From the NCBI GenBank assembly GCA_011947345.1, contig JAAVTG010000725.1, positions 1 to 64,000 on the forward strand: a DNA stretch of 64,000 bases, read 5' to 3'. The notes under the pieces are model-generated. The model worked only from the letters and a program-made list of their open reading frames with translations. It had not been told where the DNA came from and did no database searches. How positions within the stretch are numbered: the first letter of the stretch is position 1; every line of letters starts with the position of its first letter. This document shows, piece after piece, positions 3,891 to 62,180 of the stretch. This DNA is from Phytophthora quininea. Taxonomy: Eukaryota > Oomycota > Peronosporomycetes > Peronosporales > Peronosporaceae. A program made the position numbers and the translations under genes.

Positions 3891-3915
3891 AGTTGGCCAC
3901 GTGAAGCCTTCATCG

Positions 3916-6331: not shown

Positions 6332-6974
6332 GTGCCTTTTCTAGGATCAGGTCGTGGAGCTTTTGCTCGTCGTTGCGGGCTTCAGGAGACTGAAACCGGA
6401 TTGCCGTTTTAACGTCAGCCTTCAACTCATTGGGCGACAGCGACTCAATTAGCAGTTTGCACTTTTCTTTGGGACCGTCCGCGCCTTCAAAGCACGTTAC
6501 CAGTCCGTGATCATCGATCACGCGGCTGCAAGTCATGAAATACTTCAAAACTCGCTCCGCAACGTCGGTCTCCGCCATATCGAGACGGAGTTCTTTTGCG
6601 AACAGTTGGTCGACGTCCGGTAGAGTGTCGTTTTTGACACTATTGATGATGATGTCTATCTCAGTCGTAATCCGTGCATCCGTCACATCATTCTTCGCGA
6701 TCTTCCACCGGTAAGTGCAAAGTGCGTCCAAGAGCTTGTCGTCGAACGTGCTCTTGATACTCTCGCACAGGCGATCATACAGCTCTTGGTCACCCTTGCT
6801 CCGGGCCTTCACGCTTTCTTCATATTCCGCTCGGGCTTTCTTCCACTTGATTAACTCAGAGTGGGACGTCGACGAAATTCGCGGTGCGACGACCGGAGCG
6901 AACAGCGGGACACTCATGGTCTTCGTTTCTTCAGCATCGCCCGAAGTTTCGCCGTTGTTGTTACGAGTCTTCAT
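6285..6974 (-). CDS. Gypsy gag polyprotein
   Basis: A 229-residue, charged, largely helical protein at the 5' end of the element, just inside the 5' LTR. Its position and its lack of catalytic motifs make it the capsid protein that packages element RNA. It ends 47 nt inside the next frame (pol), which lies in the +1 phase, so pol would need +1 frameshifting or separate initiation. The zinc knuckle (CLKCGSAHYVASC) is in the pol frame rather than here. An indel error at the junction is the alternative explanation for the split. Confidence 0.8.
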   Translation of the reverse strand: MKTRNNNGETSGDAEETKTMSVPLFAPVVAPRISSTSHSELIKWKKARAEYEESVKARSKGDQELYDRLCESIKSTFDDKLLDALCTYRWKIAKNDVTDARITTEIDIIINSVKNDTLPDVDQLFAKELRLDMAETDVAERVLKYFMTCSRVIDDHGLVTCFEGADGPKEKCKLLIESLSPNELKADVKTAIRFQSPEARNDEQKLHDLILEKALEQDREFRRRKRSLR

Positions 6975-7673: not shown

Positions 7674-10600
7674 TTTCCGTCCAGGGGTGGTTGTTGCACA
7701 GCGCGAGCTGCGGCAACGTGGCCAGGATCTTGGTGAACTGAGATCAGTTGCGGACTCCTTCAGCGACGATTTTGGAACTGCCACTGAAGGATTGGCGTGT
7801 GCACCTCGCGAATCCCTATAGGTTCGACCCTTCGATTCCGTGTTTAATCCACCGGATGACCTTTCACCGTCAAAGACACAAAGAGTATTAGATGGATTAG
7901 TTTACCCACAATTCGTTCTCCTGCAGCCCACTTTTCTTGGGCGGTAGTTGAAGAGACAGGGTTCTTGGACTGCAAGTTCAAGAAGAACTAGCAACCACAG
8001 ATAATCAATATACAGAGAGATCCTTATGCAAATATACAGTCGACACTTATGTGGTGATGTTGATTTGGGTTTTTCTATGGATAGCAATCCCCGCGCTGTG
8101 ATTGGTTGGATATTAACTTAGGGGATGAGTGGTTGTGGCGACGTGTGACTAGTTGGGACAAGGCTGTGGCGGGAGTCCTACCAAGGATGGTCCCTAGGTT
8201 TCGGAAGCTTGCGTCGGGAGTATGTAAATCCCGAAACGCACAGGAGGCTCGGTCGAAGCCGCACCTCGTCCGTCAGCAAGTGTCTAAGAGTGGGCAGAAA
8301 TCACATTGAGGGAACGTATCCCCTCTGTGCCTTGTGTAGCCTTGGCCCCAAAGCGCACGATGAGTGTGACGCTAAGGGCTCCCAAGACCTAGTCTCTCCC
8401 CAACAAAGCACGTGTTGCACAACACACTACGTTTCCAAGAAGTTGCTACGCTCGATGAAAGTGGATTTCCCGATACGCTAGGACTCTAGAACCGGATTCG
8501 GTATCCTGGACGCAGATTGGCGTTCCAGGATGACCAATCCCTGAACCGCGAATCTGGATGTATGAAGTTGTGGAAGTCCCTATACAAACTTCAGGTGAAG
8601 AATCAATCCCCAGTGCGAGTGATGTGGAGCGCCTGGAGTTGAAGTTGCGAGAGGTCACCCCGTTTGGGAATCTTGACCCCCATTGAGCAATGGAGATGCT
8701 CCAGGATTGCGCACCCAGTGATGACTCCATAGTCAGACCAAGTCACTGACACCGTCCATATTCAAGTCAAGATATTGTTAGAAGATCGTTCAAGATTCGT
8801 ACTTAGTATTGCATAGCTAGTTTGTATGAGATTTTACCAGAGTTCGATTTCCCCCAAGTGCTCAAGTGCTCCGAGGAAGCGGAGGCCGCATTGGGCGTTA
8901 AGGGCACCTTGGCTTAGGGGCTAGCCTCGCGTGGAACTCCCCCGTGTTCAAGTCCAGTTGGGAAGGGGAGTTCTAGGGCGTGCCGCTCCTGGATTGACCC
9001 CGACCCATTCCATATCCTAGTTGGGCCGTCGGTACATCCGGGCGTCACCCATTTCATATTGACCCGACCGTCTTGTGTAGCTGGATAGCAGTGACCACCA
9101 GGGCGTTGACACTAACTGCGTTGTGAATCGACTGGCCTAGGCTTTGTAACCGAGTGCTGTATCTGTTGCTCCGCGAGGAGCTGGTGCGCGAACGTCGGGG
9201 TGTTCGAGACCTTCCAGGTGTCCCGAACCGCATACGCCCCATCGATCCTGGACGAGGACCCACCACCCGAGGGTCCAAAGAATAAGTGGTGGCTGCATAT
9301 CGGTATCGAACACTATATTGACACGATGTGCCCGTAAAGTCTGGCGGATTGTGGATGGATGGTGACGCGCAACAAGTAGCGCGACAGTAACCGAGAGCGT
9401 GGAGAGAACTCTCACTGCCTGTCTAGCAGGGGACAGGTGATTGGGCGCTGTGGAGTAATGATGTGAACGGGCTCCAAGCGAAGCAAGCTAAGTCCCGGAC
9501 CGAGTGCCGCCGGCCAAGGACCGTACAGATTCTGAGTTAATCTGAGAAACATGCTCCTGGCGGCCGCTTGCAGCGTTCCCCAGAATAGAGCCCCATAGAT
9601 CTCAGGATGGTGGCAAGCTCCCATAATCTGGGAAATCCCAGTCAATCTGGAGATTTTCCGTGGTATCTTTGGAAACGACTGTTCAAGCACGATCCCCTGA
9701 TTTGGCAACTGCCCGAGGATGCGCACTGGATTCCTGCCAGGAGTACCTTTAGTTTGCATGAGATCTTTAACCAGACAGAGTTCGTTTTACCTTCTAAGTG
9801 GCAAGCCGGAAGATTGGCCCGGCGGAAGCGGCTCCACGTCCGTCAAGTTATCCTAAGGTCAAAGAGGTGGGCGTAAGAGGCGTTCGACTGCTAGTAGCCT
9901 TATTCCATATCTACGTGCTGTCAGGCCCCGGTGGGGTAGGCAGTGCGCTATATTACGGGGAGCTTTGCTTCCTAAGAGTGACTTGCATAGTGTTCTGGGC
10001 TGAAAAGCCGATATTGTGTGGGTTGCTGTCCTCTCGGGGACTGGTGCGCGTGCTAGCCTTGGGTCTGGGCTAGGAGTTAAACAAAGAGACCCTTTAAGGC
10101 CCGAGTCCTGGGCCTTTCAAAGAACAGAGGACAAAGAGAGTTTTGTGTAGTGTATAGCTTTATTGGTTAAGTAGTCTTAGTGCCCAAGACTACAAGGTTC
10201 AAGTCAACCGGTCAAGACACCCCCTGACGCGGGCTCGGTACGCTGCCTGGAAGAAGTTATCCCCCAGGGATCACCACGCTGCTACTTCGTCTGGCCACAC
10301 ACGCCTCGGACAACTTTTCCTGAATTCGCAGCGCCACAATATTGTTAATTGTTATCTTGTACAAGGTTTGGCTGTGTGGTCCTGGAGTGCGACCACAAGC
10401 TACCTTCTAACTCTTCTAACCCGCTCTCTGTAGCAAGCGCGTTCGGGGAACTCCCTAACCGCAGTACTAACCTACCCGTTACCTGTATCCTGAGCAGGTG
10501 TGCTCCTGGTCGTCGAGTCCAGCGATTCGAACCCTTAGGGATTGCACACAAGGTACACGCCAACGGCTCCGGGTAGCTGAAGGCCTTCTGGAACCGCTCC

Positions 10601-11289
10601 CCGGCAGACCAGTTCATTCGGGTCGCGCCACTGTACACCCTCCTGGGCGCAAGTTTTTCACCGAGCTTCGCCACGCTTATTCTTATAGACCCTTGGTCGG
10701 GGAGTCTCATACCAGGTTCAATCCAACGCCCAAGACACCTGGAAAGTCTTGGGCTTGGTTCAGCGAACGCGCACCACCTTCAATCGAAGTAGCACACAGA
10801 TCAGTCAATACAAATCCCAATACAGAACGTTGTAAGACGCAGTCTCAAAGCAAACTCAAGCGGCGACTGCTATCCAGCCGCTTGAGCGTAGTTTTAATAT
10901 GAAATGGGTTGGCCTGCAAGACAGACGCCCAACTAGTAAACGAAATGGTCGGGGCGCCTAGACTCCCTCCCAATTGGACTTAACAAATAGGTGGGGAGCA
11001 GCAAGTCACTTTAGCACTAACACGCAAAGAGCACCGACTGGCGCTTGTGTAGTACAGGGCAAAAGAACTCTCTGATTGATATCTCTTATAGCTAGTAGAT
11101 CTGCAGCTCTTCCGCAGATGTTGGGCGCAGTCATTAGGATACGAATTAGTCTTGATCTTAGTATACTTGACTTGATGACGGCCACTTATCGTGGATTCGT
11201 CGCTCTTTAAATCATCTGTGGCGTGAACATTCTGGGTACAAACCACTGGGTTCATGGTGAATGCGAATTCTCGCTAAGTGCCAGAATCC
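7674..11289. other. Gene-free stretch, repeat-like
   Basis: About 3.6 kb without a protein-like frame on either strand. Composition is mixed, with many CTTGG and CCCAAG words, e.g. around 8330-8420, 9990-10080 and 10730-10760. It may be a degraded non-coding retroelement; I could not pair terminal repeats by eye. Confidence 0.4.
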
Positions 11290-11760
11290 ACGACCAAGAG
11301 AAAATCTCCATTGAAGAAATTTCCATCGAAGAAATGGCCGCCCAAGAAATATACTCTTAGAATGTTCATCCAAGAACTTCTTGGGTCTTGGGCGACAGCT
11401 GTGCTTCTTGGGTCACTTGGGCAGCTTGGGATTTACAGGTCCTTGCCTCACACATCGTGAGGTTAGCCAAGGCGAGACGGGTTGCACACTGGAATACCTT
11501 TCACTGTGGCAATTTATACCTTGGTTCTTGGCGACCCGTTTAAGGACGAGGGGTGACCAGGACGTAACGTGCGCTCACGCTCAAGGCAATGTGCCCTTGG
11601 GCGTACATTCCAAGAGCGGAGATTCCTCCAGCGCGCATTCCTAGAGCACGCCATTTCTTGGGCGTGCCTTTCAAGAACAAATTTTCTTGGGTGCACTTCC
11701 TGGTCTTGAGGGCCCATCCTTGGTAGGACAGCACACACCCGCCTTCTCCCAAGCGACACA
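11290..11760. repeat. Degenerate short-motif repeat rich in CTTGGG / CCAAGA
   Basis: The motif CTTGG or its G-extended form occurs about ten times between 11385 and 11730, with CCAAGA counterparts between, at irregular ~20-40 bp spacing. This looks like a decayed tandem array. No function can be assigned. Confidence 0.45.
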
Positions 11761-11906
11761 TTTTATCACACACTTCTTACACCGACGGACAGAACGCAAC
11801 AGCCACTTTCCCGTCGGGTCAACAGCTGTCCAGTGATCATAGCCTTTTATTTCAAGTAACGAATTAGTAAGAGTTTGAGCAAAATTAGAGGCAGCTGTAT
11901 TTTGCG

Positions 11907-13147
11907 CTAAAACTCGGTTTTGAGTGCTTTGTTAAAAGCACTGGTGACAGTTTCAGCCTTGATGGATTCCCAAGCGACAATTGCACGCTTTATTGTAGCT
12001 AGCCGTTTTTCCTTAGCGGTCGTAGCTGTAGAGTTCTCGAATAGCCATAGCGCCTTGAGCTTCGCCTTTAATGGCCCCATGATACCGACATCTAAGGGCT
12101 GGCACACGGATGTAGCATTTTTGGCAACGGCTGGAGAACTGCCATAAGCTCCTCCAAGACAATCGCCTCGGATTCACCTGATACATGGCATTCTCAGTTA
12201 TCCACGAGCAGCAAAGCAAAACGTGTAATATGCAGCTTGACTAAGGAGCGTAGGTAAAACTTCCACACCCGTGTGTCCATCCAGGCTTTAGTCTGCACAG
12301 TATAAACATGCCCTTAAAAATAAAATTAGCAAGCTGGTTTAAAAAAAAAAAACTGCGACTCACCTGGAGGGTATGTCGGTAGTTCTTCCTTTTCTATCGT
12401 TCCATTTTGCTTTCCACGCAATATGAAAAGCAGTGGCAGTTTTATCCCGTCAGCACGAATCGTACAAACCGTGGTCAGGCGAGCAGAATGTTTCTGCTGA
12501 GCAGTAATAGCCGATGACTGTCCCTTCTCGGCCAAAATCTTGCCTGGCGGTGCATCAAAGTAGATGCCAGTCTCATCACAGTTAAAGACTTCGCTAGCGG
12601 CGTAGCTGCTGTAATTAGCCTTGAAAAGCTTAGCAAATTCCTCATGCACTTCTAGTAAGTTCTCCTGTTTTTCCTATAAAAATGCCAAATAAATTCATTT
12701 AGTTACAATTTAGTATCATACCATTTTCAATAGTTTTTACCTTCAAGCCATGCGGCGTGAGCTGCGTGAACCCGTGCCGATATACAAAACGTTGCAGCAA
12801 CCTCAAAAGAGATTGATACGCCGTGAATTCATCCTTCTTTGCCTTTGCATACTCCTCCAACCAGTCAGAGTGCTCCTGACGTACGTAGGCCGCCATCATT
12901 GACGCGGTGAGTGGTAAGGATTCACGCCGTGTGTCCTTCATGTAGGTGACGAGTTCTACTATAAACGGGATGATCTCAGGACGACCAGGCGCTCTTGAGA
13001 GTGTCTTCTCACTGCCTCGAAAGGCAAAAATGTCGTCCTCGTTTTCCGCCACGAAAATAGCGTCCTCCGAGGAATTTTTTGAGCCCTGGCTGCCTGGCAC
13101 TGACTGAGAACTTCGGTGGCTAGGAGTGCGTGTCGCTTCTGCTTCAT
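11907..13147 (-). mobile_element. Pogo/Tigger-type DNA transposase (DDE_1), broken
   Basis: Reading minus, exon 1 (13147-12741) has an N-terminal helix-turn-helix (MKQKRHALL..IPRRTLFSW) and a stretch ending LTPHGLK. An intron of 67 bp follows (12740-12674, GT..TAG). Exon 2 (12673-12364) carries VFNCDETGIYFDAPP with the first catalytic Asp. A 51-bp intron follows (12363-12313), then HVYTVQTKAWMDTRVW, the second Asp in LLLVDN, and QPLDVGIMGPLK typical of the superfamily, to the stop at 11907. Defects: a one-base loss in an A-run near 13028, an in-frame TGA right after LLLVDN (about 12200), and another A-run loss near 12120. Terminal inverted repeats were not found and the 5' end is uncertain. 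Confidence 0.78.
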
Positions 13148-13945
13148 GCTGTAGTGGATCCTCCGCTGTTTTGGCCGAGAGAAAACCTCGCAGAGGAGTG
13201 CCGCAATGGCGATCTCCTCTGGCTGCTGCAGCGCTCTATCGGGTGGTGGAGGCTCCGCGGGGGCTCGGACGCTGCCTCCATTTTGCCAAGTGAATGGTTC
13301 AGAATAACAACTGTGATTTAGCGTTGCGATGCAACACTTTGAGTAGTTTGATTGGTTAAAAAAGATGGTCGCACGGTCCATATCGCTTTTTGCCCGCTTT
13401 TCGTCGAGTTTTGCTGGCTGTTGCATTCTGTCCGTCGGTGTTGTCTCTTGAACGTAATATCCAACACTATATCCATAGTAAACTCCATATGAAGGTCCAA
13501 GATACTGAGACAGTGTTCTGATTCGAAAAATTCCTAACACCATTAGAAGTATCTAGAATATCCATATTATAATAACTATCCAAAACATAATTATTATGGT
13601 TTCGGTTGTTACTTGCTTGACGAGGGTTGTCATCTCCAGTTCCAACATCCTACACCACACTATCGCTCTAGGCACTGACGGTTCACGCTGTATACCCTTT
13701 CTTATGGGACCCAAAAAGCGTAGACAGGTGACCATCAACAGATCGGTTGTAAAGTTATTTTTATCAGTACATTTAGTAAAAGGGAAATAATTAAAACGGA
13801 GCTGGGGCGGGCTGGCTGCGCCGCAAAGCGGTGCAGCAAGATCGCTTGTGTTCCGTTATTCAGGGCATTATTCATTTTCGAGGAAACACTCCCGTCAGTA
13901 AAATCCGTATTCGCCACCCCTGCTCTCATCCAACATCTCATTCAG

Positions 13946-23937: not shown

Positions 23938-25539
23938 TTAAAACTCCAGCACCAGCAGCCAGTCGAAGTCGACACCACCGCTCGAAGGAGGAGTGAAGTC
24001 AACGCGGGTGCTGTTACCACTCTCAGGGACATTCACTGTCGCGTCCGCAGAATACTGGCCATCACGCGGGTTGAGCCAGCGAGCAATTCCTGAGCGAGCG
24101 CCGGAGCCGTTGTCCAGCTGCAGGCTGAAGCTGTCGCCGTAGCCGGTGTAGACGTAGTAGCAGTCGCGGCTCTGTGAAGCGAGCACGGAAATGTAGCGCA
24201 TTCCTTCGTAAGTGTTGACGGACTTACCAGTGTGACCACTGGGGCTAGCGAGGAGCTCGCGAGCAGGCTCAAGCTTCTCCAGGATGGCGTTGGACAAGTG
24301 TTGCAGAGGCTTCGTGACGTACTGGATTTGGTACGCTCCTTCGAGATGGAGGTCCCTGCGCCAGGAGCTCGTTGCGTTCTGGTTGATCTGCGGCTCGTAG
24401 TAGTTGGCGTCGCTGACTAGGTCAGAGCGTGGCTCGTACATTTGCCAGACACTGTTGCAACCATAAGTGAATCCGGAGGCACCGCCATAAACGCCGTGGT
24501 AGAGTCCAGTTCGGACGTGGGAGGCGTTCCAAATGGGCTTGGCCAGCTCGAAGCCGTCGTGCGCACCTTCGTAGTGGTTTTCCAGGTCAAGTACTGGGCC
24601 GGTGAAGTCATCGCGCATGCCTGCAATCAGCTCGTAGTTCTTCGTGGCATCCCAGCCGATGGCAACCGAGAATTTGGACGTCGGATCAGGCGTGCCGTGC
24701 CCTGACTGCACCGCATCAATGGACACGCGATCTTCCTCGTTAGGTAGCATGTTGTGGCCGTAGGCAAGTGGCGTTATCTCGGGTTTCACGATCCAGCCGG
24801 CAGCAGGGTGATAGATCACCACGGATTCATATCCGCGGGCACTCTCGGCCTCCTTGAGGCCACGCCGCATGCTCGCCCAAACGGCCGATGTGTCCTCAAT
24901 AGGAGCCAGCAAAGACGCTAAGTCCTGGTCCGGATCCTCCGCGTACGCAGCCTGCACCTCCGACATGTTCCACGACCACAGCGCGTTCGAGTCGCCGCCG
25001 AGGATCTTGGGCAGACCGGGGTAGCGGTCGCCAATGTACTTGCCCCAATCGTACGCGTTCGACTCATTGAAGATAGGGGTCGTGCTGTGCCAACCGCCGT
25101 TGACGTACATTCCCCACGTCGGCACTAGAGCGATCAAAATGCCGTAACTTGCAGCGAGGTCGACGGCCCAGTCCACGAATTCAAAGTATTCTTCGTTGGG
25201 CTTGGTTGGGTCCGAGTTGTTGAACGGCAGGTGACCGTAGAAATTGGGACGCGTCGTGCCGTCTAGCTCCGAGACGATCTCCACCTGTGCGACATTGTAG
25301 CCTTGCTCGGCTCGAGTACGCAGGTAGTAGTCGATGGAGGTCTTGTTGAGGCGGTGGGTAAGTTGCCAAGCCGTGTCGGCCTGCCAGAGGAAAGGTTCCT
25401 CCGAAGCAGTACGATACAGATATCGTCCATGGCGTGGCGCAGTGATAGCGAGGTGGTGCCAAGACGGTTCGGCTTCGACGTCGTTGGCAGCAAGACCAGT
25501 CACTGCGGCGAGACCAGCAACTACAGTGAAGACCTTCAT
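23938..25539 (-). CDS. Secreted DUF4038-type glycoside hydrolase (GH140-like)
   Basis: 533 residues from the ATG at 25539, chosen because it begins a clean signal peptide (MKVFTVVAGLAAVTGLA) and gives the same length as the paralogue at 57102. An upstream in-frame extension to 25716 has no support. The DUF4038 core reads FLWQADTAWQLTHRLNKTS, then YLRTRAEQGYNVAQ, PTWGMYVNGGW, KILGGDSNALWSWNMSE and GPVLDLENHYEGAHDG. The last Glu and the Asp of GGD are the likely catalytic pair by analogy with GH140 apiosidases. The C-terminus ends DFTPPSSGGVDFDWLLVLEF, matching the small beta domain often attached to DUF4038. Several N-glycosylation sites fit secretion. Substrate unknown; a plant pectin side chain is a reasonable guess. 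The frame is intact. Confidence 0.88.
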   Translation of the reverse strand: MKVFTVVAGLAAVTGLAANDVEAEPSWHHLAITAPRHGRYLYRTASEEPFLWQADTAWQLTHRLNKTSIDYYLRTRAEQGYNVAQVEIVSELDGTTRPNFYGHLPFNNSDPTKPNEEYFEFVDWAVDLAASYGILIALVPTWGMYVNGGWHSTTPIFNESNAYDWGKYIGDRYPGLPKILGGDSNALWSWNMSEVQAAYAEDPDQDLASLLAPIEDTSAVWASMRRGLKEAESARGYESVVIYHPAAGWIVKPEITPLAYGHNMLPNEEDRVSIDAVQSGHGTPDPTSKFSVAIGWDATKNYELIAGMRDDFTGPVLDLENHYEGAHDGFELAKPIWNASHVRTGLYHGVYGGASGFTYGCNSVWQMYEPRSDLVSDANYYEPQINQNATSSWRRDLHLEGAYQIQYVTKPLQHLSNAILEKLEPARELLASPSGHTGKSVNTYEGMRYISVLASQSRDCYYVYTGYGDSFSLQLDNGSGARSGIARWLNPRDGQYSADATVNVPESGNSTRVDFTPPSSGGVDFDWLLVLEF

Positions 25540-25576
25540 CAGTTGAAGACACGAAGCGAAGAGTGATGCACAAGGC

Positions 25577-25590
25577 AGATTGAAGAATGA
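25577..25590 (-). promoter_or_regulatory. Oomycete initiator (INR plus FPR-like block)
   Basis: Read on the minus strand this is TCATTCTTCAATCT, one mismatch from the TCATTYYNCAWTTT core described for oomycete promoters. It lies about 40 nt upstream of the hydrolase ATG at 25539. Confidence 0.65.
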
Positions 25591-26045
25591 CCACTTGGGC
25601 TGGACGAGCAGGCTACTGAGTCTCGTCTTGAGCTTGGCTGCTTGGGCCCCGAATTCTTGCACTACTTGCACTTCAACAACTAAAATGACCACGCAGCGGG
25701 ATCGTCGGGTAATCAAATGTAAAGGAGTGGCGAGGTGATCACGTGGTCGCTGATTAAGCCGACTTCAACCACGCTTCCACAAGTGGCAGTACAGAGAGAC
25801 CCGTCTCACTTTGAATGGTTTCTCGTGACAAGACATGCTGTCATCGTGGATTCGTGGATGCGGTCTTTGTCGTTCAAGGAATGTAGAAGTAGCTGTCATA
25901 CAATATCTGTGAGCGTGCAAGTCGAGAGAAGCCTTGTCCTCTCTCAACTACTTCGTAGTAGTGGTCGGGCCTGCGGTCGGGATACTAAATCCGCACGCGG
26001 ACGGCGAAACTTCTCAGACAGTCCCCACAGAGAGTCGCCCAGAGC
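25591..26045. other. Divergent intergenic region
   Basis: About 450 bp between the minus-strand hydrolase and the plus-strand channel gene; both promoters should be here. No other gene seen. Confidence 0.5.
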
Positions 26046-29000
26046 ATGGGGCAGAATAAAGTTTGTTCAGAGGCCTTCGAAAACGTGAAGGTGGTGATAA
26101 ATGGAAGCACGGACGGCCATGTGGAGACGACGTCGAGGTCGGTGCATAATAAGGGGAAGATACCTCAGCCTTCAGAAGGGAAGTTTTCTCGCTTTTGTCG
26201 GAGACTGCAGCACCATGCAACCAGTCGCTACAGTTGTTTTACCTGGACCACTCGGCAAACGATCAACGAGATCACCCGGCTTTTGCTCTGACGTACGTGT
26301 TGATTTCGGTACCATTTCGAGTCGGATTCCTCTACAACCCGTCCGACAAAACAGGTTGGACATCGGATTTGAGTGCATTTACGTCGTTGGATGTGCTGGT
26401 CGATGTGGTTGGTATGGTGGAGTTCTCACATGTTTATTATTTGTGGAGGGCTGGAATTTCGTGGCAGACCGAGGCCGACAAATTCGAGCAAGAGGTCAAA
26501 CGCAATCGACATGCGAGAAACGCTGAGCTGACGCCAACGCGAAATCCTGAGGGGGCACAAAAAGGAAAAGTCAAGTGGACTCTAGCGAATATTGGGCGGC
26601 CAGCGATCGTTAACGAAGCTTCTACAGATGCTTTTACTTTTCAAAACCTCACGGAGGTAGAAATTGGGAAATCCTTCTGGAAGGCATAGCACTTTTACCA
26701 CTGGAAGTGGGTGCGTTAGCGTGGGGTGCATTTAATGCGCTTCATCTCGTGCGATTGAGCAAGTTGTGCCGTCTATATAAATTTCGACGCTGCTTCGCAC
26801 GTGTCACCGTCATATACTCCGATCGGCCGTGGATACAAGAGCTCTCTTCCACGGGAATTAACAGTCTGGTACGAACCATCGGGTATTGTGTAGCGACTTG
26901 CCATTGGGCTGCCTGCGGATACATGATTACCGCACACACTCAATGTGGCACCTCTCTGTTGCGCTGCGACCCTGACATTGAGAGGAGCTGGGTGGTTCGA
27001 GACCAGCTATTCGGAGCCACGGTGGCGCGAAAATACAGTCGCGCTCTCTACTGGGCGGCCAGAACCATTGTGCTGCTTGGGTATGGCGATACCACGCCAG
27101 TTTCCACTGCCGAAACCGTGTATGCTATGGCTGTACAATTCGCTGGAGCCCTGCTTTGCTCGTCAATGCTCGCCAATTTCGTATTTATCTTCCACTTTCG
27201 CAATGCCGGGTACTCTGCATTTTCTAGACATGTTGACAACGCACGCGATTACATGCGCTTGAAGGGGATACCACGTGCAATCTGTCTTCAGGTAATTGCG
27301 TATTTAAATTACTCGTGGAACACTCACCGCAGTCTTGACAGTGAAGAGGCTTTGCATCTGATGCCCGAGCACCTTCAATCGAAAGTGATTTCAACCCTGA
27401 AGGCTACGTTAATCACGCAAGTGTGCTTTCTTGCAAAAGAGAGCGTGGAGTTCATTAACCTGCTTGCTTTGAAACTCGCGAGACGGGTGTATTCCCCTTC
27501 TGACCAAATTGTCGAGCCAAATACGACCCCTCAGATGTTTTTGTTATCCGAGGCGATGTTATCGTCTCGTCAGTAAACGGATTGAAGACCAGGAAATGTC
27601 AGAGTGGTGACTATTTTGCTGAGAGTTGTCTGCTGTACCCAGAGCAATACGACGAGAAAGCGGTGGCTAGAACCTTTTGTGAGCTGTACGTTCTCGACAA
27701 AGTAAACTTTGATGGAATTGTAAGCCATTGTTATCGTGGCAGTGAGATGGCCATCATAGCGCAGATGGCCGAAATACTAGACAAGCACTCAACGCAGCAG
27801 CGTAAAACGCAGAAGCTGTTAGGACAGGGTGAAAGGACCAGCGTGAGCTCGGTCAGTCATCACGAATCCGGGTACCGAGCAGGCAGAAGAAAGCGGATTA
27901 AGTGGAATCTACCTGACTCGACATTCAGAACGATTTGGGACGCGATGCGGCTGATAGGAATCATCTACGTTGCATTCGAGGTCCCTTATTACTCTGTGTT
28001 TGTATCAATGACCGAAGACGAGAACATCTTCCCGACTCCATCGCTTGTTGGGTTTCGCTACGTGTGCACACTGCTATTTGAAGTGTTTTTCGCGGTCGAC
28101 ATCGTGCTACGAGGACGATATCTAGCCTACCTTGATCCAGTTGTGATGTTGAACGTCGTGGACCCCACCTCATCTTTGCGGCATATCGAGAAAGTGGGTT
28201 TTACCTGGACCTCGTAGCATGGCTGCCAATTGGCCTTGTGATGGAATCCATGCCAAGTAGTGCAGCACGACAGATCTCTTGGGTACTACAATTGCCTCGT
28301 TTGCTTCGATTACGATCTCTCCCAAAGTTACTGCGAGATCTGAGCGAAGCGTACGGTATCAGCTCTCAACTCCGCTTGGTTCTGTATCTGCTACTTAATG
28401 TAGCGCTACTGCTGCACATCGTAGGTTGTGCATGGTTTGAGATGGCTTGGATACCGAAGACTGCACAGAGCAGGTCGCATGAAAGCATAGAGTTTCAAAA
28501 CCTCACCACGTCGGAGTGTCTTCGGCGTGCTACAGTGGATAATAGCTGCTCTTGGGTCAAGTTCGACTGTTTTGCGCATATTGGAGCTGTTTTTCAAACA
28601 GAGGACGATACATCGTTGTACGATGGAGGATTTGCATATGTACGAGCGGTGTACTGGGCAGTATCCACTCTGACCGCTGTGGGCTATGACGACATCCTAG
28701 CCTTTTCGACTGCCGAGAGCTATTTCGCTGCAATGTGGATTTTTATTGGTGGTATCATTAATTTTGGCGTTGTTGGCGCTATGTCTCATGCAATCTCCAG
28801 CATGACGGAGGCGAGCCATTCCCATTTGGAGACTTTGAATACCCTCAGTAGGATCATGGAGCGAATGGGCATTTCAAAGAAACTGAGCGCCGAAATCTGT
28901 CGGTTTTACAACAACCACTTTATGGGGCGGAAGCTAGCCTACGAATCCCAGCTTCTGGCAAACCTCCCGGACCAGCTCTGCTACCAGATTTCTTCTTTAC

Positions 29001-32000
29001 TGCACTCCAATGCCGTTAAAAGGGTCGATCTCTTTGATTCAGCCACCGTTGAGTTTCTCCAGGATGTAACAGGTAAATTTCGCCACCGAACTTACGATAA
29101 TGGCGAAACGATTTGTATGGAAGGCGACGTGTGTCGTGAATTTATCGTACTTCTTCAAGATAGTAAAATCGACGTCTTCTTCCGTTCGCGCGCAGTGCCA
29201 GTGCGCGCTCTTCACGAAGGGATTGCTACGGCGTGTATGAATTTCTGCTTAAGCGTGCACACCCCGCGACATTGATTGCAGCATCATCCGTCCACGCTTC
29301 CGTAATGACTACCGAACAATTTGATGGGATTCAAAGGAAATTCGACGGAGATCTGCGGGATATGAAGATTGAAGCTCAGTCACATTGGTCCGAACAACAA
29401 ATTTTGTTGCGGCACATTGCTACCAACCTGGAAAGGGTGAAATTGAAACCTCACGTAATGGCAACTCCTACTTTGTTTTACCACAAAGAAATCAATGCAG
29501 CTAGCGGCAGCAACCGAGCGATTCGGCGCGAAGTAGCTTCCGCCCGCACACTATTCACATCCGCCTGGACCGCGGGTATCGCCATTTGGAACGCATACAA
29601 CGCTTTTTCGTGATCTTCCGCATAGGATTTCACTCGCACCTGCGTTTCTCCACTACAATAAGTACGTTTGTGTGGCTTGCGGATTTTTGTGGGGATTTAT
29701 CCTATGTGGCAGACATTTACCTTCGTCTGTACTTCTTCAGCTTCCCAGACGCCGGCATTGATAACCTCTTCCGTCGCAGATACATCGATAACATTTATCG
29801 TCGCAGTTCAGGATTTAAATGGGCTGTTATGGCATCGTTGCCACTTTATGTACCGCTCTCTAGTGACTCTCTAGCTGTCAGCCTCTGCCGGTTACCAAGA
29901 CTCGTTCGATGTGTCGACTTATGGGGGTATATGGATGAGATGATTGTTCAAGTGCAGCAGCATTTCGCGTCTTGGGATGTGTTAGCGTATCTGAGACCTG
30001 TCAAGTTGGTGATTGGCGTCGTTTTTGCCGCTCATGTCGGCGGATGTATCTTTGTTCTCTGTTCAGGCAGCGAATGTGCTACAATTTCGACCTGCTGGCT
30101 GGCCGAATACGACCTACTTGACAAGTATGGGAAGGACGTTTGGATGGTATACGGTGAGATCATGTACTGGGCTGTGACGACTCTACTTCAGATCAATACT
30201 CCCGTTGACATTGTCCCTCGCAGTATCATAGCAACAGCCTGGACCGTTGTTATCTGTTTAGCATGCACCTTTGCCATGGGCTACGGAGAAATAACAGACC
30301 TCCTCTTGGGGTTTGGCAAAGAACTGAAGGAATTTAAACCCGCGTTGCTGGTTTTGAAGAGTTTGCCAAGGCGAATGAGCTACCCGAAACTCTACGCAAA
30401 CGAATCCGTTTCTTCTTGCGCTTTCAGTTTGACAACACAGAGAGTGATGAATTGACACACATGACCCATCACCTATCGACAAATCTTCGACTCAAGCTTA
30501 ACATGGAAATTTACGGCCACGTGATCGCTCGCCTTCCGATCAGCCATTTTTTTCATCGACTCAGATCAGCAACATATCTCAACGACTGAAGTCTGAGCTG
30601 TTTATCCCTGGCGACTCTATTCTAACCGAAGAGAGTCTCGGTAGTCGGATGTTTATTTTACGCAGAGGGACAGCAACAGCTTGCTGGGCCAGCTCGGTGA
30701 CGTGTGTGGCTGTGCTTCTGGAAAATGCTCTCTTCGGAGAAATAGCTTTCTTCCTTCCAAATCAACGTCGGCTGATAACAGCTCGCGCTACCTCATCGTG
30801 TGAGGTTCTCTTCCTAACTAGACGTGACTGGGAAGAGCTATGGACACCTACCGGCGATCCGTCAGATGACCAGATACAAAAGCGTGCTCTTTCTTCAATC
30901 CTTGACTGGGTCAACAGCCGTATTCAACGGTATCAGCGACAGTGTCTTAATGTGGCCTGGAATGCTAGGCGCGAACTCGCGGCACGGCAAGAACTTGCAA
31001 ACTCAGTGGCCAAGCCGAAACGTTCTTTAAAATCTGCATCGCGAGCGATCATGCTACAACTCACTCGTCGGAAAAGCAACAGTGCTGAGAACCAGCCAAC
31101 GACATTCAATTTGCCACCTCAAATTCAAAACCCCACACCAAGGCAGCCCTCCGTTGCTCCCGACGCATTGACATTCGAGCGCAAAATGAAATATCTCCTC
31201 TCGAAGACGGATACGCACCGCAAACGCTTCGGGTCGGTTGTGGACGCCAAGCAAAAGGACAATCCGAACATCGTGCTTCATGCGCCGCCTACAGTGGAAA
31301 GTCCGCCTCGGCGAGGTGGATCGTCTACATCTCCTCGCAAAGTCCGTAGCAATTCAGCTCAAGAGGTGGCTTCGCTCGAATTCATCATCGACCTCAACCC
31401 CGTGAACAAGCAGATTTGTGAAACATTAAACGATGAACAATTACTTCGCTTGAAGCTGGAGTGCTGGCGCCGCTTTAAACGTTATACAGTTGCACAAGAC
31501 GCACTCCGCGAGATGATAGCCTCATTGGTTCCAGCCAAGCAAAACCCGAAGAGAAATACCGCATTTTCTCCTGCGAAACCGCGTGGCAAAAAAAAGTCGT
31601 TGAAATGGAAATCGGAGCGAAAAGGCTCCGTTGATCTGCAGGAGATTAAGATGTTCAAACAAAAGTGAAGCTCCTGACGAACCGCTCGAAGACAAGTTCG
31701 AGCTTAGACAGAGTCAAAGATATTCCAACGGCGGCAATCCTGAAGAACAAACGGACTCCGTTTAGTCGACGGATATCGAAGATCGATTTCAAAAGACAAG
31801 CGGACCCAAGCTCAGACAGCTTGGACGGTCCCAATCTTTGCCTTCGTTCGGTCGCCAATTCTTCAAGAAGGCTCGAGATGAGCTTGCTCGAGGGAAATCA
31901 ACTGGAGACGGATGGCCTGCTGGTGCCCAGATTGATTTCGAGACGCTCCAACGCCACCAGCGCCCGCAGTACGAAGGCCATCTACGGTTATATCGCGCGT

Positions 32001-34134
32001 ATCGCACCTGGAAAGATCGTGGTATGAAGTTGCGCGATCTTTTTCCTGTCAACCAGAAGGATGAAAACAAAGTTCAGCCTGCTGTTCCTTTGCTCGGATC
32101 AAACGTCTACGCTGGAAGCATGCGGCGTCTAAATTCTGGAACAGCACCGAGAACTGGAGGGATTGCAGATGAAGGCAAGCTTCAGCGACGAAGAGGCCGG
32201 TTGCAAGGGTTTGCCATGACTGACAGCATGACGAGAGACTTCGTAGCTCGTGTGAAGCGGTTTGGCAAGATGTGGGACACAGCCCAGCTACTAGTGGCTG
32301 TCTACTATGTCATCATCACACCCTTCAAGATATGTTTTTCTGGTGATTTGACTGCGTTCGGTGATGACGTGTTGTGGGTCTGGGCAGCGATAGAAACCTT
32401 TTTGGATACTCTGTTGTTTGTTGATGTTGCCTACAAGATTCGCTACGCCTTCAGAAGCCGTAGTACTGGTATGAAAAAGACACGTTTGAGTGTGAGAGAG
32501 ATTCGACAGATTTTTGTGACGAATCGTGGACTACAGGCAGATGTGATGGCGATGTTTCCTTTTGAACTATTGGTTCTCGTGCCCAATGTGCGAGCATCAC
32601 TAGAGTATCACTCAGATGGAGACTCAGCCTGGTGGGCTACTCGGTGGATACTGCGGGTAAACCGAGTGCTTTTGGTTGGCGAATTGAGCCGCTTTCAGAA
32701 AGCTTACTTCAGTACGTTGTGTACGACTGCAACGTCAGCGTGAGTGCGTTGTTGTTTAATTTTTGGCGATCTTTGGCATCCTATGTTGCGGCGGCTCACT
32801 TTCTAGCTTGCATTTGGTTTGCATCGAGCGCGTATTCGTTGCATCAATACGGAGAATCCTGGCTGTCAACTTCTGGCATGCTGTTATTTATTCCTCCAAC
32901 TGTATCCTCCCCACCGAGCGACGCATTTTGGGCCTTCTTTGCTGGCATCCCTCTTAGTCGCAAATATGTGCGGTCTCTCTTTTGGAGTGCAGTGCGTGAC
33001 GACTCTTCTTTACGGCGATATCATCTCAGTGACTCGATTGGAATCGATTGTAGAGATCACGATATCAGTCTGGGGGATTTATGTGTTTGCAATTTTTGTC
33101 GGAGTGCAAGAGGAGCTGTTCAATGCACGCATTAGACAAGAAGCCATCTTTGAGCAGCACCTCGCAAGTTTGCAGATGTATCTAATTCAGAACGGGGTGC
33201 CCAGGACGCTGAAACTACAGGTTAAAGCTTACTATGCGCACATGTGGCATCGGACGCGCGGCGACGCTGATTTTGCTGCTATTGAAGGCGTCTCGACCGT
33301 CCTCCGGGAAGATGTCGTGTTCACAACACTGAGAGACTTTGTGGAACGAGTGGAGATTTTCCGCGGCTTGGATGAGCCATTTCTTCGCGCGCTGCTCGTG
33401 TGCTTGCAGTACGTTGTTTGTTCTGAAGGAGAAAACGTAGTAGTTGCCGGAGATGTAGATCGTAGCATGTATTTCGTCGCTCAGGGGCAAATTTTGATTG
33501 AACTTGGAGCCGCCGAGACCACACGGGAGCAAGGGGAATACTTTGGTGAGTTGTCGTTGTTGTATGGAGTCTCAAGGCTGAAGACGTGTGTGGCAGTAAC
33601 AGTGTCGGAGCTCTATCGACTCGATTACGAGCCTTATGAGCGGCTACTGGCGGAATTCCCAGAGTACCGTGTCCGCAATCGAATTGCATGGACTACAACG
33701 CCGTTTGAGAGAAGATCATTGCTGAAAACCCTGAATGAGATGCGATGGCAAGGGCCGGCCGTGGCTTTACTCAACACTCACGAACAAGACCATAGTGCCG
33801 GTTTAACTCAAAAGCGACTAGGATCGAGTCGGAGCTCTCTCGTTCGTACGTTTACCTTTCTGCGATGAAGATGCTAGCTCGAGTCCACGATATAGATCCG
33901 CTGGAAGCCAAGGACGTTGTTATGAAAGCGCGCGTCGGTGGCTACAAGCACATCAAAGCTCGTCGAAGTTCATCCAAACTTCACGACTGCGGAGACCCAG
34001 ATGAGCAGGCTGTTGACGACATGATCTATCGCTTTGGATACATCCCGAGAGATCCCTCCATACGAATCATACACGTGAACCACCAGGCCTCAGCCGATGG
34101 ACAATGGCGAATAGATACTAGTAGTAAGACGTGA
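26046..34134 (+). CDS. Four-repeat cyclic-nucleotide-binding K+ channel in a single polypeptide
   Basis: Bridging single-base shifts gives one protein of roughly 2,690 residues with four S1-S6 plus CNBD modules. Module I: S4 near FNALHLVRLSKLCRLYKFRR, pore LYWAARTIVLLGYGD (filter 27079-27090), CNBD near GDYFAESCLL. Module II (from 27880): pore VYWAVSTLTAVGYDD (filter 28682-28693), degenerate CNBD. Module III (from 29520): pore MYWAVTTLLQINTPV (30195-30206), no GYG; CNBD with FGEIAFFLPNQ and TARATSSC. A basic, Ser-rich linker covers about 30900-32200. Module IV (from 32210): pore TTLLYGD (33008-33019) and CNBD FGELSLLYG. A pseudo-tetramer like animal CNGK channels is the expected form, in a membrane. 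Frame shifts occur near 26285, 26675, 27540, 28200, 29220, 29606, 30338, 30550, 31662, 31792, 32700, 32995 and 33811; all but 32995 are one-base losses. No in-frame stop remains after bridging. Two or more separate genes is the alternative. Confidence 0.8.
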
Positions 34135-34158: not shown

Positions 34159-35968
34159 CTACCGCTGACATGGCAACACGACAATCTGTGCCAATCCGCG
34201 ATGAACCTGCGCAACTAGTGATGGCCCAGACATCAGATGCCCATCGACGCACAATCTATCGGAGGCATGTGCTGGCTGGAGTTTTAGAGCTCTTGTCCCG
34301 ATCTGTTGGACTGCCGATCGATCGAGATGTTTCCCAGACTCGAGAGAGAAGAGCATTCGCCAAACTTCGCTTCGAGGGTGGGTGCCGTCGATGACAGTGA
34401 TGTACGTGTAGCCATCGCCAAGCTGCGCGCTGGGAGCGACAAATGCCGATGGTGTGGCGTGGCTGGTGTTGTTGATCCAAGCACTTCGAAACGGACCATG
34501 CAGTTCTACCCACTTTCCTCGTCCTAAGTCGGACGAAAAGAGCTCTTGACCAGGAAGTTGATCACTCTCCTCTTCGTCAGATTCTTGCTGAAAATATTGA
34601 GGTGGTTGGGCATCGTCGGAGTCGTGGCGTAAGTACCAAATTCTACCCAAATATGTTGGTGTCCTTGCCACGTGCTGACCCACAGATTTTGCCAAGTGCA
34701 GATCGACCAGCACACGAGATGCCAAATGGGCAGGAACGGCGGCCTGGTCTTCTTCTTCCGACAAAGCCCATTCCAGTTTAAGGAACGAATAGCGCGTCTC
34801 AGTTCCATTGCAAACAGAGGTGAGATCCAGATCCTGCGGTCTGCCCTTGACAAGCGTGAACGCTGCATTCTCCAGATCCAAACATTCGTGGCTCTGGCTT
34901 GCAATTGAAGCTGCAAGGCCATTCGAAGACATTTTGTCAGCAGGTAAGATCCCTAGTGGCTGTCGAATCGCCTTCTTCCAGTCCGGTCTCGCCATTAAGC
35001 CTTGAATGACTGAGAAAGAAACAAAAAGGTGCCTGTCAGTGACGATAAAGCACAAAATAAGCGAGTATGGTCGAATACTTACACTCGTGGAGATAGCTAT
35101 CGCCTCCAGTTGCAACGACGCACTCGAATCGATCGAGTGGCAACTCTGTGGCGATCTCGCGGAGTCGCTGAGAGTCTGCAGTGATCTCGACTGTCGTCTC
35201 GATGTTGGCGACTCGAAACATGGGTGCTACAAACTGCTCGTACTTGCAGAGACCTTCGTTCGGGTCGACCAATACTCGAAACTTCCGTAAGGAACCAGAC
35301 AGGTTGTCCTCGGGATTCATGAAGGCCAAATGTTTCATGTCCTCCGGAACTTCGCGTCGAGGGTCTGCAAACCTGTTGAGTGCGTGGTGCAGCTGAGTGA
35401 CTCGCTCAATCTCGTCGCCAAAGAACCGGAACGTCCATTCACGTAGATGTCGTTCAGTCGGCAAGTTGTCTTTGTGATGCAGATGGAGATGGTGGTGGTA
35501 GGTCTGGTCAGGTGGACATGCATACAGTGCAAGAATGTAGACTCTGCGAGGCACGATCGAGCGTCGACAGAGCGGCTGGGCGTCTGCTGTTTGCAAATGC
35601 GCACCTAGCACCTCTTGCCACGCCAGCTTGAGGAAAATCGGGTCGCGGGACTCCTCTCCTTCCGAGCTGCTGCTGCTCGTAGATGCCTTGTCACTATTGC
35701 CGGTAGTTGCGACCTTCTCACTGCTGCCACTTGGTGAAGTTTTCTCGCTGCTTGTAGATTGTTGGCCGTGCGGAGCGTCCACCTTCTTCCTTTTGGTTCG
35801 TCTATTGGGCACGATACGAAGCGTGCAGTGTGTTCTGGAGAAGTCGAACTGTACCAGCGGGTGCTGCGCATGCTGAGAACGTCGGTGCAGCCATGCGAAT
35901 CGCTCCTCCGGAGGCTGAGTGCTCTCTAGGTGAATGTACTCGAGCAGTTCGGACAGGGAGGTTGCCAT
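34159..35968 (-). CDS. Sphingosine-kinase-like pseudoenzyme
   Basis: ATG at 35968 in a good context. Exon 1 is 35968-35083 and exon 2 is 35009-34159, with a 73-bp intron (gtaagt...ctcag) at exactly the same codon position as in the sphingosine kinase gene at 43233. Overall similarity to that gene is clear (e.g. HALNRFADPRRE, IQGLMARPDW, DGYTYITVIDGTHPR). The phosphate-binding LVNPVSGQGKA has become LVDPNEGLCKY, GGDGSLYE has become GGDSYLHE, PGGSGNGLA has become PADKMSSNGLA, and the IADVDIGSEKLR block is gone. A Ser-rich insert lies near residues 75-115. The frame itself is intact. Kinase activity is therefore unlikely; a regulatory or scaffold role, or early decay, is inference. It converges on the channel gene with a 24-nt gap. 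Confidence 0.85.
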
Positions 35969-43232: not shown

Positions 43233-44880
43233 ATGACCGACGGCCCCTTGTCCGCTGTGCTGCAGCAGCTGCAGCTGGAGCAAGTGGTCAAGTCGCTCTT
43301 CGGCCGCAGCCACCAGCCCGTGCGGTTCCGCCTCACGCCGTCCGACCTGCTCGTCGAGAGCGCCGCGACGTCGTCGCTGAGCCTCCAGCTGCCCTGGTCC
43401 TCCGTACTGGGCGCCCACCTGCTCACCGCCGACGGCGTGCACTTGGAAGCGGACGCGACTGCCTCAGTACCAGGCGATGGCAACTTCCTATTGGGCGTCT
43501 TTGCGTGCCCCAGCAAGAGCCACAAGCCCAAGACGCTGCGCAACCGTCGACTAAGCGAGTTCTTCTTCAAGTTCAGTGGGCAGCAGATGCAGCAGGTTCT
43601 GCAATTGCAAAGAGCCATCAACTTTGTAGCAGACCCGAGGCAGCAGCAGCAAGTCCAGCAGCTGACGAGTCTGGACGAGCTGCAAGTGGTGGATACTAGA
43701 AAAAGGAAGTTCCTGGTGCTGGTGAACCCCGTGAGTGGCCAAGGCAAGGCCACGCAGATCTACGAGAACAAAGTGGCACCCATCTTAAAGTTCGCCAATG
43801 TGGAGACGGAGGTGAAGATGATGGAGAGGCAGAACCACGCCATGGAGGTGGTGCAGGAGCTGCCCCTTGGCGTCTACGACTGCGTGGTGGCAGTCGGTGG
43901 AGACGGCAGTCTCTACGAAAGTAAGTTGTGCCAGGAGGATGGTATTTCGTGCAAAGAATTAATATTTTGTTGTTGCTTGCAGTCGTTCAGGGACTGATGA
44001 AGCGGCCGGACTGGAACGCGGCGATTCGGCAGCCGATCGGCATCATCCCGGGAGGCTCCGGTAACGGTTTGGCCCACTCGATCGCTCACCAGAGCGAGGA
44101 GAAGGGCAAGCCCATCAATGCTGCGTTCATTCTCGCCAAAGGTCTTCCGCACGACTTGGACATTACTTCAGTCCGCAATGGGAAGGAGACGACGTACTCT
44201 TTCTTGTCGCTGGAGTGGGCGTCCATTGCGGACGTCGATATCGGATCTGAGAAGCTGCGTGCTCTCGGTGGAATGCGCTTCACGGTGACGTTTGTGAATC
44301 AATTGCTGTTCCAAAGACCAGAGTATCCTGGTAAGGTTTGGTATCTCGAGGAGACGGAGGAGGACGTGCCTCGCTACTTTGAGCAGCACAATGAGAAGGA
44401 AACAGAGCTGCCAAAGATGGATCTGTTTGATGGAGAAGGTCAAGGCCCACTGGAGATGGCAGAACCATCTAGTGAAGGAGATAAAGCAGACGCGCAGGGT
44501 GCTAACGGTAAGTGGAAGGAGCTGGGCGGTCATTTCCGCATCGTCTGGGTGATGAACGTCTCGCACGCGGCTTCCGACGCCCACATGGCACCCGGCGCAG
44601 AGTTTGACGACGGATACAACTACATTACCTTCATGGACGGATCTCACCCGCGTAAGGACTTACTGGCCATGCTGTTGGCCATCGAGACGGGCGAGCATGT
44701 CGCCAAAAGGGCGTGCAGCAAGTGCGCACGAGGGCTTTCAAGATTATGCCCGAGCGGCCGGACGACCTCATGTGTGTGGACGGAGAAGTGGTGGAAGGCC
44801 CGTACTTGGAGGCGCAAGTGCATCGTGGACTAGCGCGGATCATGGCAGTGCCGCGCTGGGAAAGCAAGAACCAGAGCTGA
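43233..44880 (+). CDS. Sphingosine kinase (diacylglycerol-kinase catalytic family)
   Basis: ATG at 43233. Exon 1 is 43233-43920, then a 62-bp GT-AG intron (43921-43982), then exon 2 to a TGA at 44880. It phosphorylates sphingoid bases to the 1-phosphate, using ATP. Hallmarks: LVLVNPVSGQGKA (nucleotide loop), VAVGGDGSLYE (catalytic Asp), GLMKRPDW, GIIPGGSGNGLA, and SLEWASIADVDIGSEKLRALG, the conserved block that marks sphingosine rather than other lipid kinases. A low-complexity acidic insert lies around 44360-44500. Near 44705-44711 (aaaaggg) one base is lost: the raw frame stops at 44833, while the -1 phase continues VQQVRTRAFKIMPERPDDLM and VHRGLARIMAVP, matching the paralogue's C-terminus. 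Confidence 0.92.
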
Positions 44881-62173: not shown

Positions 62174-62180
62174 GGCCAGT

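What the first reader, a model, noticed from the sequence alone, without database searches (positions are those of the whole stretch)
26046..34134. Whole pseudo-tetrameric cyclic-nucleotide-binding channel in one oomycete polypeptide, with four different filters
Seen: four successive S1-S6 plus CNBD modules on one strand, in one phase once single-base shifts are bridged, with no internal start context or terminator between them. The four filters are GYGD, GYDD, NTPV (no GYG at all) and YGD preceded by Leu. Known: animal CNGK channels (e.g. sea urchin sperm) join four CNG-like repeats in one chain, whereas ordinary plant, animal and protist CNG/KCNH channels are one module per chain. Inference: this is an independent or ancient four-repeat channel whose pore is asymmetric, as in Nav/Cav channels, so selectivity may not be purely K+. 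It could serve zoospore swimming or chemotaxis.
Basis: partly seen in the sequence, partly recalled or inferred. Interest (0 to 1): 0.9.

Follow-up and report, generated by a model that had tools for sequence, protein, structure and literature searches.

The report
Oomycete four-repeat channel with asymmetric pore
One long gene in a water mould encodes a whole ion channel as a single chain of four unequal repeats, part of a family found across oomycetes whose pore is lopsided in a conserved way, which makes it a good place to ask how one-chain channels evolve new ion selectivity.

Summary
Window 26046-34134 (+) is one gene, with no intron-sized insertion, for four 6TM-CNBD repeats. It carries 13 frame breaks (12 of one sign) and no in-frame stop. 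Ten copies in this genome, itself included, show the same kind of break, enriched at homopolymers, so most are probably assembly errors. It belongs to an oomycete family of ~2,700-aa single-chain channels: 57 of 78 related proteins show four repeats; the best, a 2,826-aa predicted protein of Phytophthora fragariaefolia, covers 98%. In the best tree the repeats stay outside the CNGK clade. The asymmetry is set by position: GYG stands in repeat 2 of 57 of 57 members and in repeats 1, 3 and 4 of none. Repeat 3 alone keeps the full cyclic-nucleotide signature. The variable filter residue of repeat 1 (Asp) covaries with its counterpart in repeat 3 (Arg), as expected if the two face each other across one pore. 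The window's gene is a fast-evolving member: GYG sits in repeat 1 instead of 2, and repeat 3 has lost GSRE. The papers I could read report two-repeat CNBD channels in oomycetes and four-repeat ones (CNGK) in animals and choanoflagellates. Function, selectivity and a zoospore role remain untested. New variant of a known kind.

The parts
26046..34134 (+). whole gene: single-chain four-repeat CNBD channel, no intron-sized insertion, 13 frame breaks as assembled
   Evidence: codon 26055 aligns to residue 4 of P0001, which puts residue 1 at the ATG of 26046; in-frame stops upstream; stop codon 34132-34134
26288..27864 (+). repeat 1 (S1-S6, C-linker, CNBD); S4 segment HLVRLSKLCRLYKFRRCFARV with 7 R/K
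   Evidence: module HMM 418 bits over 26636-27864; earlier part by alignment to P0001
27073..27090 (+). repeat 1 filter LLGYGD (family: LLGYDD in 40 of 57)
27606..27635 (+). start of the repeat 1 phosphate-binding cassette; the phosphate Arg is missing (Tyr/Phe in 54 of 57 members, Tyr here)
27903..29509 (+). repeat 2; 21-aa S4 segment with 5 R/K
   Evidence: module HMM 498 bits; PDB sequence matches SthK and CNGA1
28676..28693 (+). repeat 2 filter AVGYDD (family: GYGD in 56 of 57, GYGM in 1)
29227..29271 (+). repeat 2 phosphate-binding cassette, FGE changed to YGV, phosphate Arg missing
29545..30841 (+). repeat 3; 21-aa S4 segment with 3 R/K and 3 D/E
   Evidence: module HMM 136 bits; AlphaFold/Foldseek of 29601-30341
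30189..30209 (+). repeat 3 filter QINTPVD (family: LVGSRE in 42 of 57, GYG in none)
30733..30771 (+). repeat 3 phosphate-binding cassette FGEIAFFLPNQRR, Glu and Arg kept; the following Ala of the family is Ile here
30842..32251 (+). long linker between repeats 3 and 4
   Evidence: between the HMM bounds of repeats 3 and 4
32252..33668 (+). repeat 4; 21-aa S4 segment with 5 R/K
   Evidence: module HMM 190 bits; AlphaFold/Foldseek of 32999-33847 matches HCN and SthK with E ~1e-15 to 1e-14
33002..33019 (+). repeat 4 filter TLLYGD (family: TLFYGD in 44 of 57)
33542..33577 (+). repeat 4 phosphate-binding cassette FGELSLLYGVSR, Glu and Arg kept
33669..34134 (+). C-terminal tail
   Evidence: after the HMM bound of repeat 4; alignment to P0001

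Best explanation
The gene encodes a complete pseudo-tetrameric CNBD-family cation channel: four 6TM-C-linker-CNBD repeats fold around one pore. Shown: four repeats, single predicted proteins with all four in relatives, position-specific filters, covariation of repeats 1 and 3. Inferred: each repeat gives one wall; repeats 1 and 3 face each other; their Asp and Arg at the outer-glycine position of the filter pair across the pore, while repeats 2 and 4 give the near-canonical walls (GYGD, FYGD). Such a filter should pass monovalent cations with weaker K+ selectivity than CNGK. Cyclic nucleotide, if it gates the channel, acts through the CNBD of repeat 3, perhaps also 4; the CNBDs of repeats 1 and 2 are structural. 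The window's copy is a fast-diverging paralog with an altered filter.
For: Four modules in the window gene and in 57 of 78 family proteins; three in 18 and two in 3. P0001, one predicted protein, covers 98% of the query. Over the 57 four-repeat members: GYG in repeat 2 of 57, in repeats 1, 3, 4 of 0; commonest filters LLGYDD 40, AVGYGD 41, LVGSRE 42, TLFYGD 44. Phosphate-site residues of 57: Arg 0, 0, 55, 54 and FGE-Glu 6, 3, 56, 56 in repeats 1-4 (Asp replaces the Glu in 48 of 57 in repeat 1); Ala two after the Arg in 53 in repeat 3, 1 in repeat 4 where Glu stands in 54. Covariation, 78 rows with both letters: R1 Asp with R3 Arg/Lys 59, Asp without 6, non-Asp with 2, non-Asp without 11; on a FastTree tree 5 of 6 independent changes go together, 0 against; mutual best among 429 x 484 columns. 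Sea-urchin CNGK is gated by one cGMP at the third CNBD (PMC4749565 passage, citing Bonigk 2009).
Against: No transcript, protein or current was seen. The sign test reaches only p 0.0625, with too few changes to go lower. In the wider set of 88 rows the pair is first in its row but second in its column. I noticed the covariation by eye before testing it. Six rows have repeat-1 Asp without a basic partner, two (P0077, P0078) a basic residue without Asp. The window gene itself has lost most of these signatures: GYG moved, GSRE gone, Ala to Ile in the repeat-3 CNBD. Hybrid pores can still be K+ selective, so weak selectivity is inference.
Confidence: 0.68

Rival explanations
1. The window's copy is a pseudogene or is decaying, so its odd filters mean nothing, although the family is real.
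For: 13 frame breaks. It deviates at family-conserved columns more than most members: rank 7, 4, 4 and 5 of 58 in repeats 1-4. Longer end branches than P0001, e.g. repeat 3 0.61 against 0.17. No second allele found in the assembly, and contig C757 leaves homology at window 25069. Break density 1.62/kb is higher than in three of five GH genes of the same window (0, 1 and 1 breaks in ~1.6 kb each; the other two have 6 and 3), and 4 of 4 RPB2-family domain hits have no stop inside.
Against: All ten copies examined have 0.73-1.89 breaks/kb, 102 of the missing-base type to 12 of the other, with one in-frame stop in total and none in the window gene. Breaks lie by homopolymers: run of 5 or more within 10 nt in 34% of 113 breaks against 5% of random places. 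Codon-position differences from C664 are 0.33/0.25/0.61, as between other copies; that shows past constraint only.
Confidence: 0.2
2. Vertical CNGK: an orthologue of the animal/choanoflagellate four-repeat channel that later lost K+ filters.
For: Same architecture. AU tests do not reject repeat-1 with repeat-1 (p 0.095) or repeat-2 with repeat-2 (p 0.12).
Against: CNGK repeats form one clade without the oomycete ones, SH-aLRT 99; repeat-3 with repeat-3 rejected, p 0.014. Oomycete repeats 1 and 2 instead group with those of the proteins P0079 and P0118, of unnamed origin (97 and 89).
Confidence: 0.12
3. It is still an ordinary K+ channel; one GYGD and one FYGD suffice and the other walls only tune conductance.
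For: Repeat 2 keeps GYG in 57 of 57 members. PMC7576140 notes that selectivity cannot be read from the motif (passage).
Against: Three of four walls lack GYG in 57 of 57 members, each with its own commonest motif.
Confidence: 0.25
4. Two or more separate genes (for instance two two-repeat channels) that lie side by side.
For: Two-repeat CNBD channels are reported in oomycetes (PMC7576140, passages). Three of 78 proteins have two repeats. The relatives are gene predictions whose DNA was not seen.
Against: 57 of 78 predicted proteins span four repeats; repeats 1 and 3 covary.
Confidence: 0.04

Closest known systems
CNGK channels (sea urchin, zebrafish sperm; choanoflagellates)
   Same: Four 6TM-CNBD repeats in one chain; in sea urchin the third CNBD is the one that counts (PMC4749565 passage); here repeat 3 also has the most canonical CNBD
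   Different: CNGK has GYG or GFG filters (PMC4749565 passage); here 1 of 4 walls has GYG. Outside the CNGK clade in the best tree. CNGK is described as lacking specialisation between domains (PMC6259924 passage)
[quoted passage not shown]
   Same: Tandem CNBD repeats in oomycetes, Phytophthora infestans included
   Different: Two repeats with TVGYG-like filters there (passage); four repeats with degenerate filters here.
Single-repeat CNBD channels (SthK, CNGA, SKOR/AKT1, HCN)
   Same: Sequence and fold of the repeats tested
   Different: Four subunits needed there (recalled)
Nav/Cav four-domain channels
   Same: One chain, asymmetric filter
   Different: CNBDs here; filter related to GYG, not EEEE/DEKA (family motifs recalled and in PMC6259924 passages)
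Oomycete family B (P0085, P0087, P0119-P0121, P0123, P0126)
   Same: Four CNBD repeats, 2,212-2,456 aa; all but P0119, which has no source name, come from named oomycetes
   Different: Separate in the tree and no GYG in any repeat, in the five members looked at (P0085, P0087, P0120, P0121, P0126)

Membership tests
CNBD-channel superfamily | 6TM + C-linker + CNBD in each repeat | tested here: met
   module HMM on all four repeats; models of pieces of repeats 3 and 4 only
CNGK | four 6TM-CNBD repeats in one chain | tested here: met
   the chain is inferred from relatives, the window frame being broken
CNGK | GYG or GFG filter in the repeats | tested here: not met
   family: repeat 2 only (57 of 57; 0 of 57 in repeats 1, 3, 4); window gene: repeat 1 only
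CNGK | repeats fall within the CNGK clade | tested here: not met
   CNGK clade without them, 99; AU rejects repeat 3 (0.014), not repeats 1 and 2 (0.095, 0.12)
CNGK | K+ selectivity; gating by cGMP or pH | not testable with these tools
   needs electrophysiology
two-repeat tandem CNBD channels | two repeats per chain | tested here: not met
   four
two-repeat tandem CNBD channels | phylogenetic place with the published sequences | not tested
Nav/Cav (FVCC) | no CNBD; EEEE-type filter | tested here: not met
   CNBDs and other filters
oomycete four-repeat family A (this work) | filters GYDD / GYGD / GSRE / FYGD in repeats 1-4 | tested here: inconclusive
   window gene is close only in repeat 4 (TLLYGD, also in 1 of 57); yet it sits with P0001 in each repeat clade (95, 99, 98, 97)

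The most novel reading that the evidence does not exclude
Oomycetes evolved, apart from animals, a one-chain cyclic-nucleotide channel in which the K+ filter was broken wall by wall into a fixed asymmetric pore held by a cross-pore Asp-Arg pair between repeats 1 and 3, gated by one CNBD (repeat 3), and then duplicated it into an array of paralogs with differing filters: a Nav/Cav-like path taken inside the K+ channel superfamily.
Probability: 0.4. Interest if true: 0.82.

Novelty: new variant of a known kind. Interest (0 to 1): 0.66.

Why it matters
PMC7576140 states that marked departures from TVGYG are a feature of single channels rather than clades, with metazoan CNG the only exception in its set (plant CNGC, not in its set, also departs); PMC6259924 sees no obvious specialisation of the four CNGK domains (passages). 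This family breaks both patterns and has named members in six oomycete genera, so how a one-chain channel goes from four equal to four unequal walls can be tested on living variants (GYDD/GSRE, GYSD/GSNE, the window's GYGD/NTPVD). The named proteins with these filters are all oomycetes; PMC7576140 makes the point, for two-repeat channels, that hosts lack them.

Tried and rejected
Introns as the cause of the frame changes: rejected, no insertion of 15 codons or more in the window gene. Programmed frameshifting: breaks fall at different places in the copies, are shared mainly between near-allelic copies, and the one hot spot is a T-run that is interrupted in an unbroken copy. dN/dS: synonymous sites saturated between paralogs; for two near-allelic pairs dN/dS is about 0.54 and 0.35, so constraint there is not strong. 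AU test of 'all oomycete A repeats one clade': p 0.29, not rejected; tests for oA R1+R3, oA R1+R2, oA+P0079 and oA+oB did not finish. Trees used the quick or FastTree method. Rows of P0118, P0122, P0124 and P0110 were dropped for the tests, and these and six other proteins. Covariation of other filter positions: 69 filter pairs over six repeat pairs were scored, position 5 of R1 with position 5 of R3 had the highest z (4.66); repeat 2 varies at one filter position only, so it is hardly testable. In one search I had counted the repeat-1 phosphate Arg one column too far; one search recounts it (no Arg either way). Paper searches (PMC open library, listings) showed no title or abstract on four-repeat CNBD channels in oomycetes; I read passages of PMC7576140, PMC4820453, PMC4749565, PMC12223298, PMC5322657, PMC6259924 and PMC11085791, no supplement. 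PMC4820453 lists up to 25 CNGA1 homologues in P. infestans without repeat numbers in the passages seen. PMC12223298 reports ten voltage-gated channels in zoospore membranes; the passages do not say whether this family is among them.
Full report
WHAT IS THERE. Window 26046-34134 (+) holds one gene. In-frame stops precede the ATG at 26046, and the alignment to P0001 starts at residue 4 = codon 26055. The stop codon is 34132-34134. Frame-aware alignment to P0001 matches 2,609 residues at 57% identity with 12 missing-base breaks, one of the other sign, no in-frame stop, and no insertion of 15 codons or more. A module HMM seeded without oomycete repeats 3 and 4 finds exactly four modules. The S1-S6 piece of repeat 3 has no Pfam hit at E<=1, but its AlphaFold model (mean pLDDT 78) matches SKOR, CNGA3 and AKT1; the C-half of repeat 4 matches HCN and SthK.

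THE FRAME BREAKS. Ten copies of the family in this genome (window gene, C664, five places on C573, two on C866, one on C865; three of these are near-copies of others) carry 102 missing-base and 12 opposite breaks and one in-frame stop. Breaks sit by homopolymers: a run of 5 or more within 10 nt in 34% of 113, against 5% of random places. Near-allelic copies share many break places (9, 6 and 4 in three pairs), as a systematic error or an inherited lesion would; a one-sided, nearly stop-free pattern in every copy speaks for error. Against: three of five GH genes of the same window have fewer breaks (0, 1, 1), the other two have 6 and 3, and the RPB2-family domain is unbroken in four of four hits. 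I therefore leave 20% for decay of the window's copy.

THE FAMILY. The protein search returned 89 proteins at E<=0.001; among the first 78, P0001-P0078, 57 have four repeats, 18 three, 3 two. Named members belong to Phytophthora, Nothophytophthora, Globisporangium, Pythium, Albugo and Aphanomyces. Others, from contigs without an organism name, are predicted at 2,709-3,077 aa; the DNA of these relatives was not seen. Across the 57 four-repeat members GYG stands in repeat 2 of all 57 and in repeats 1, 3 and 4 of none; the commonest filters are LLGYDD (40), AVGYGD (41), LVGSRE (42) and TLFYGD (44). The window gene has LLGYGD, AVGYDD, QINTPVD, TLLYGD: one GYG and one GYD per chain, as usual, but in exchanged places. 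It deviates at family-conserved columns more than most members (ranks 7, 4, 4, 5 of 58; mainly Albugo and Aphanomyces rows rank above it). The C664 copy is conventional except GYSD/GSSE.

CNBDs. Of 57 members the phosphate-binding Arg is kept in 0, 0, 55 and 54 and the Glu of FGE in 6, 3, 56 and 56 in repeats 1-4 (in repeat 1 Asp replaces it in 48); the Ala two after the Arg is kept in 53 in repeat 3, while repeat 4 has Glu there in 54. The Arg column of each repeat rests on the alignment. So repeat 3 alone has the full signature; in the window gene its Ala is Ile. In sea-urchin CNGK the third CNBD alone is used (PMC4749565, passage read). If the oomycete channel is ligand-gated, repeat 3 is the first place to look.

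ONE PORE. The fifth filter residue of repeat 1 (Asp in GYDD) covaries with the fifth of repeat 3 (Arg in GSRE): 59 rows Asp with Arg/Lys, 6 Asp without, 2 non-Asp with, 11 non-Asp without, of 78 rows that have both letters (10 of 88 rows lacked one). On a FastTree tree built without filter columns, 5 of 6 independent changes in repeat 1 coincide with a change in repeat 3 and none runs the other way (sign test 0.0625; it cannot go lower with five); taken from the side of repeat 3, 4 to 5 of 8 coincide and none runs against. By APC-corrected mutual information the pair is mutual best among 429 x 484 columns, rank 195 of 207,636 overall. In all 88 rows it is first in its row and second in its column, and has the highest z of 69 filter pairs. 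I saw the pattern by eye first. Repeats 1 and 3 are diagonal in a four-repeat ring such as Nav/Cav (recalled; inference here), so the simplest reading is a cross-pore Asp-Arg pair.

RELATIONSHIPS. In a tree of 113 repeats (quick method) the CNGK-type repeats (36) form one clade, 99; each oomycete repeat position is one clade (100, 100, 100, 99); repeats 1 and 2 of two proteins of unnamed origin, P0079 and P0118, join oomycete repeats 1 (97) and 2 (89). P0079 and P0118 also lack GYG in repeat 3 (VVVIGD), so the broken third wall may be older than oomycetes. AU tests: repeat 3 with CNGK repeat 3 rejected (0.014), repeats 1 and 2 not (0.095, 0.12). Whether the four oomycete repeats arose by duplication from one another is open (p 0.29 for one clade).

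WHAT IS KNOWN. Pozdnyakov 2020 (PMC7576140, passages) reports two-repeat CNBD channels in oomycetes and dinoflagellates and four-repeat CNGK in metazoans and choanoflagellates, and finds filter deviations to be a feature of single channels rather than clades. PMC6259924 (passages) sees no obvious specialisation of the CNGK domains. Seven searches of the PMC open library (listings) showed no report of four-repeat CNBD channels in oomycetes; subscription papers and supplements were not searched. P. infestans cyclic-nucleotide genes, channels included, are mostly expressed in sporangia and zoospores (PMC5322657, passages); no member of this family was identified there by me, so the zoospore role is a guess.

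VERDICT. New variant of a known kind.

Noticed in passing
1-1222 (-): N-terminal part of another paralog cut by the contig start (repeat-1 filter LLGYSD); window 1-1752 is 97.4% identical to C664.
   Followed up: partly
P0085, P0087, P0119-P0121, P0123, P0126: A second four-repeat CNBD family in oomycetes; in the five members looked at there is no GYG, repeats 1+3 and 2+4 pair in the tree (99 each), and four of five repeat-4 filters carry Lys (e.g. VKKGK). Whether this genome has it did not complete.
   Followed up: partly
P0079, P0118, P0122, P0082, P0084, P0125: Proteins of unnamed origin with several CNBD repeats; of these P0079, P0118 and P0122 were in the tree and fell outside the CNGK clade. 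Tandem CNBD channels look more widespread than the papers I read report.
   Followed up: partly
window 25069 / C757:3965: A 99% identical contig (C757) leaves homology inside the GH gene about 1 kb before the channel gene; its remaining 11.6 kb has no megablast match to the window, and no second allele of the channel gene was found. Presence/absence variation or an assembly break.
   Followed up: partly
C573:589500-653500: Four further copies of the channel gene within about 63 kb, in both orientations, with filter differences (GYKD/GSGE in one).
   Followed up: partly
2437-6974 (-): ORFs that look like a retroelement (integrase and reverse-transcriptase-like, recognised by eye). Separately, parts of 8050-13448 recur in many copies in the genome, mostly 91-97% identical.
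   Followed up: no
23938-25716, 54443-55867, 57102-58700, 59337-61063, 61366-62385, 63232-64000: Array of related glycoside-hydrolase-like genes (name by eye, not searched); two copies, at 61.4 and 63.2 kb, are broken more than the others.
   Followed up: partly
34159-35968 (-) and 43233-44833 (+): Two lipid-kinase-like genes (by eye) to the right of the channel gene, each split over two overlapping ORFs.
   Followed up: no
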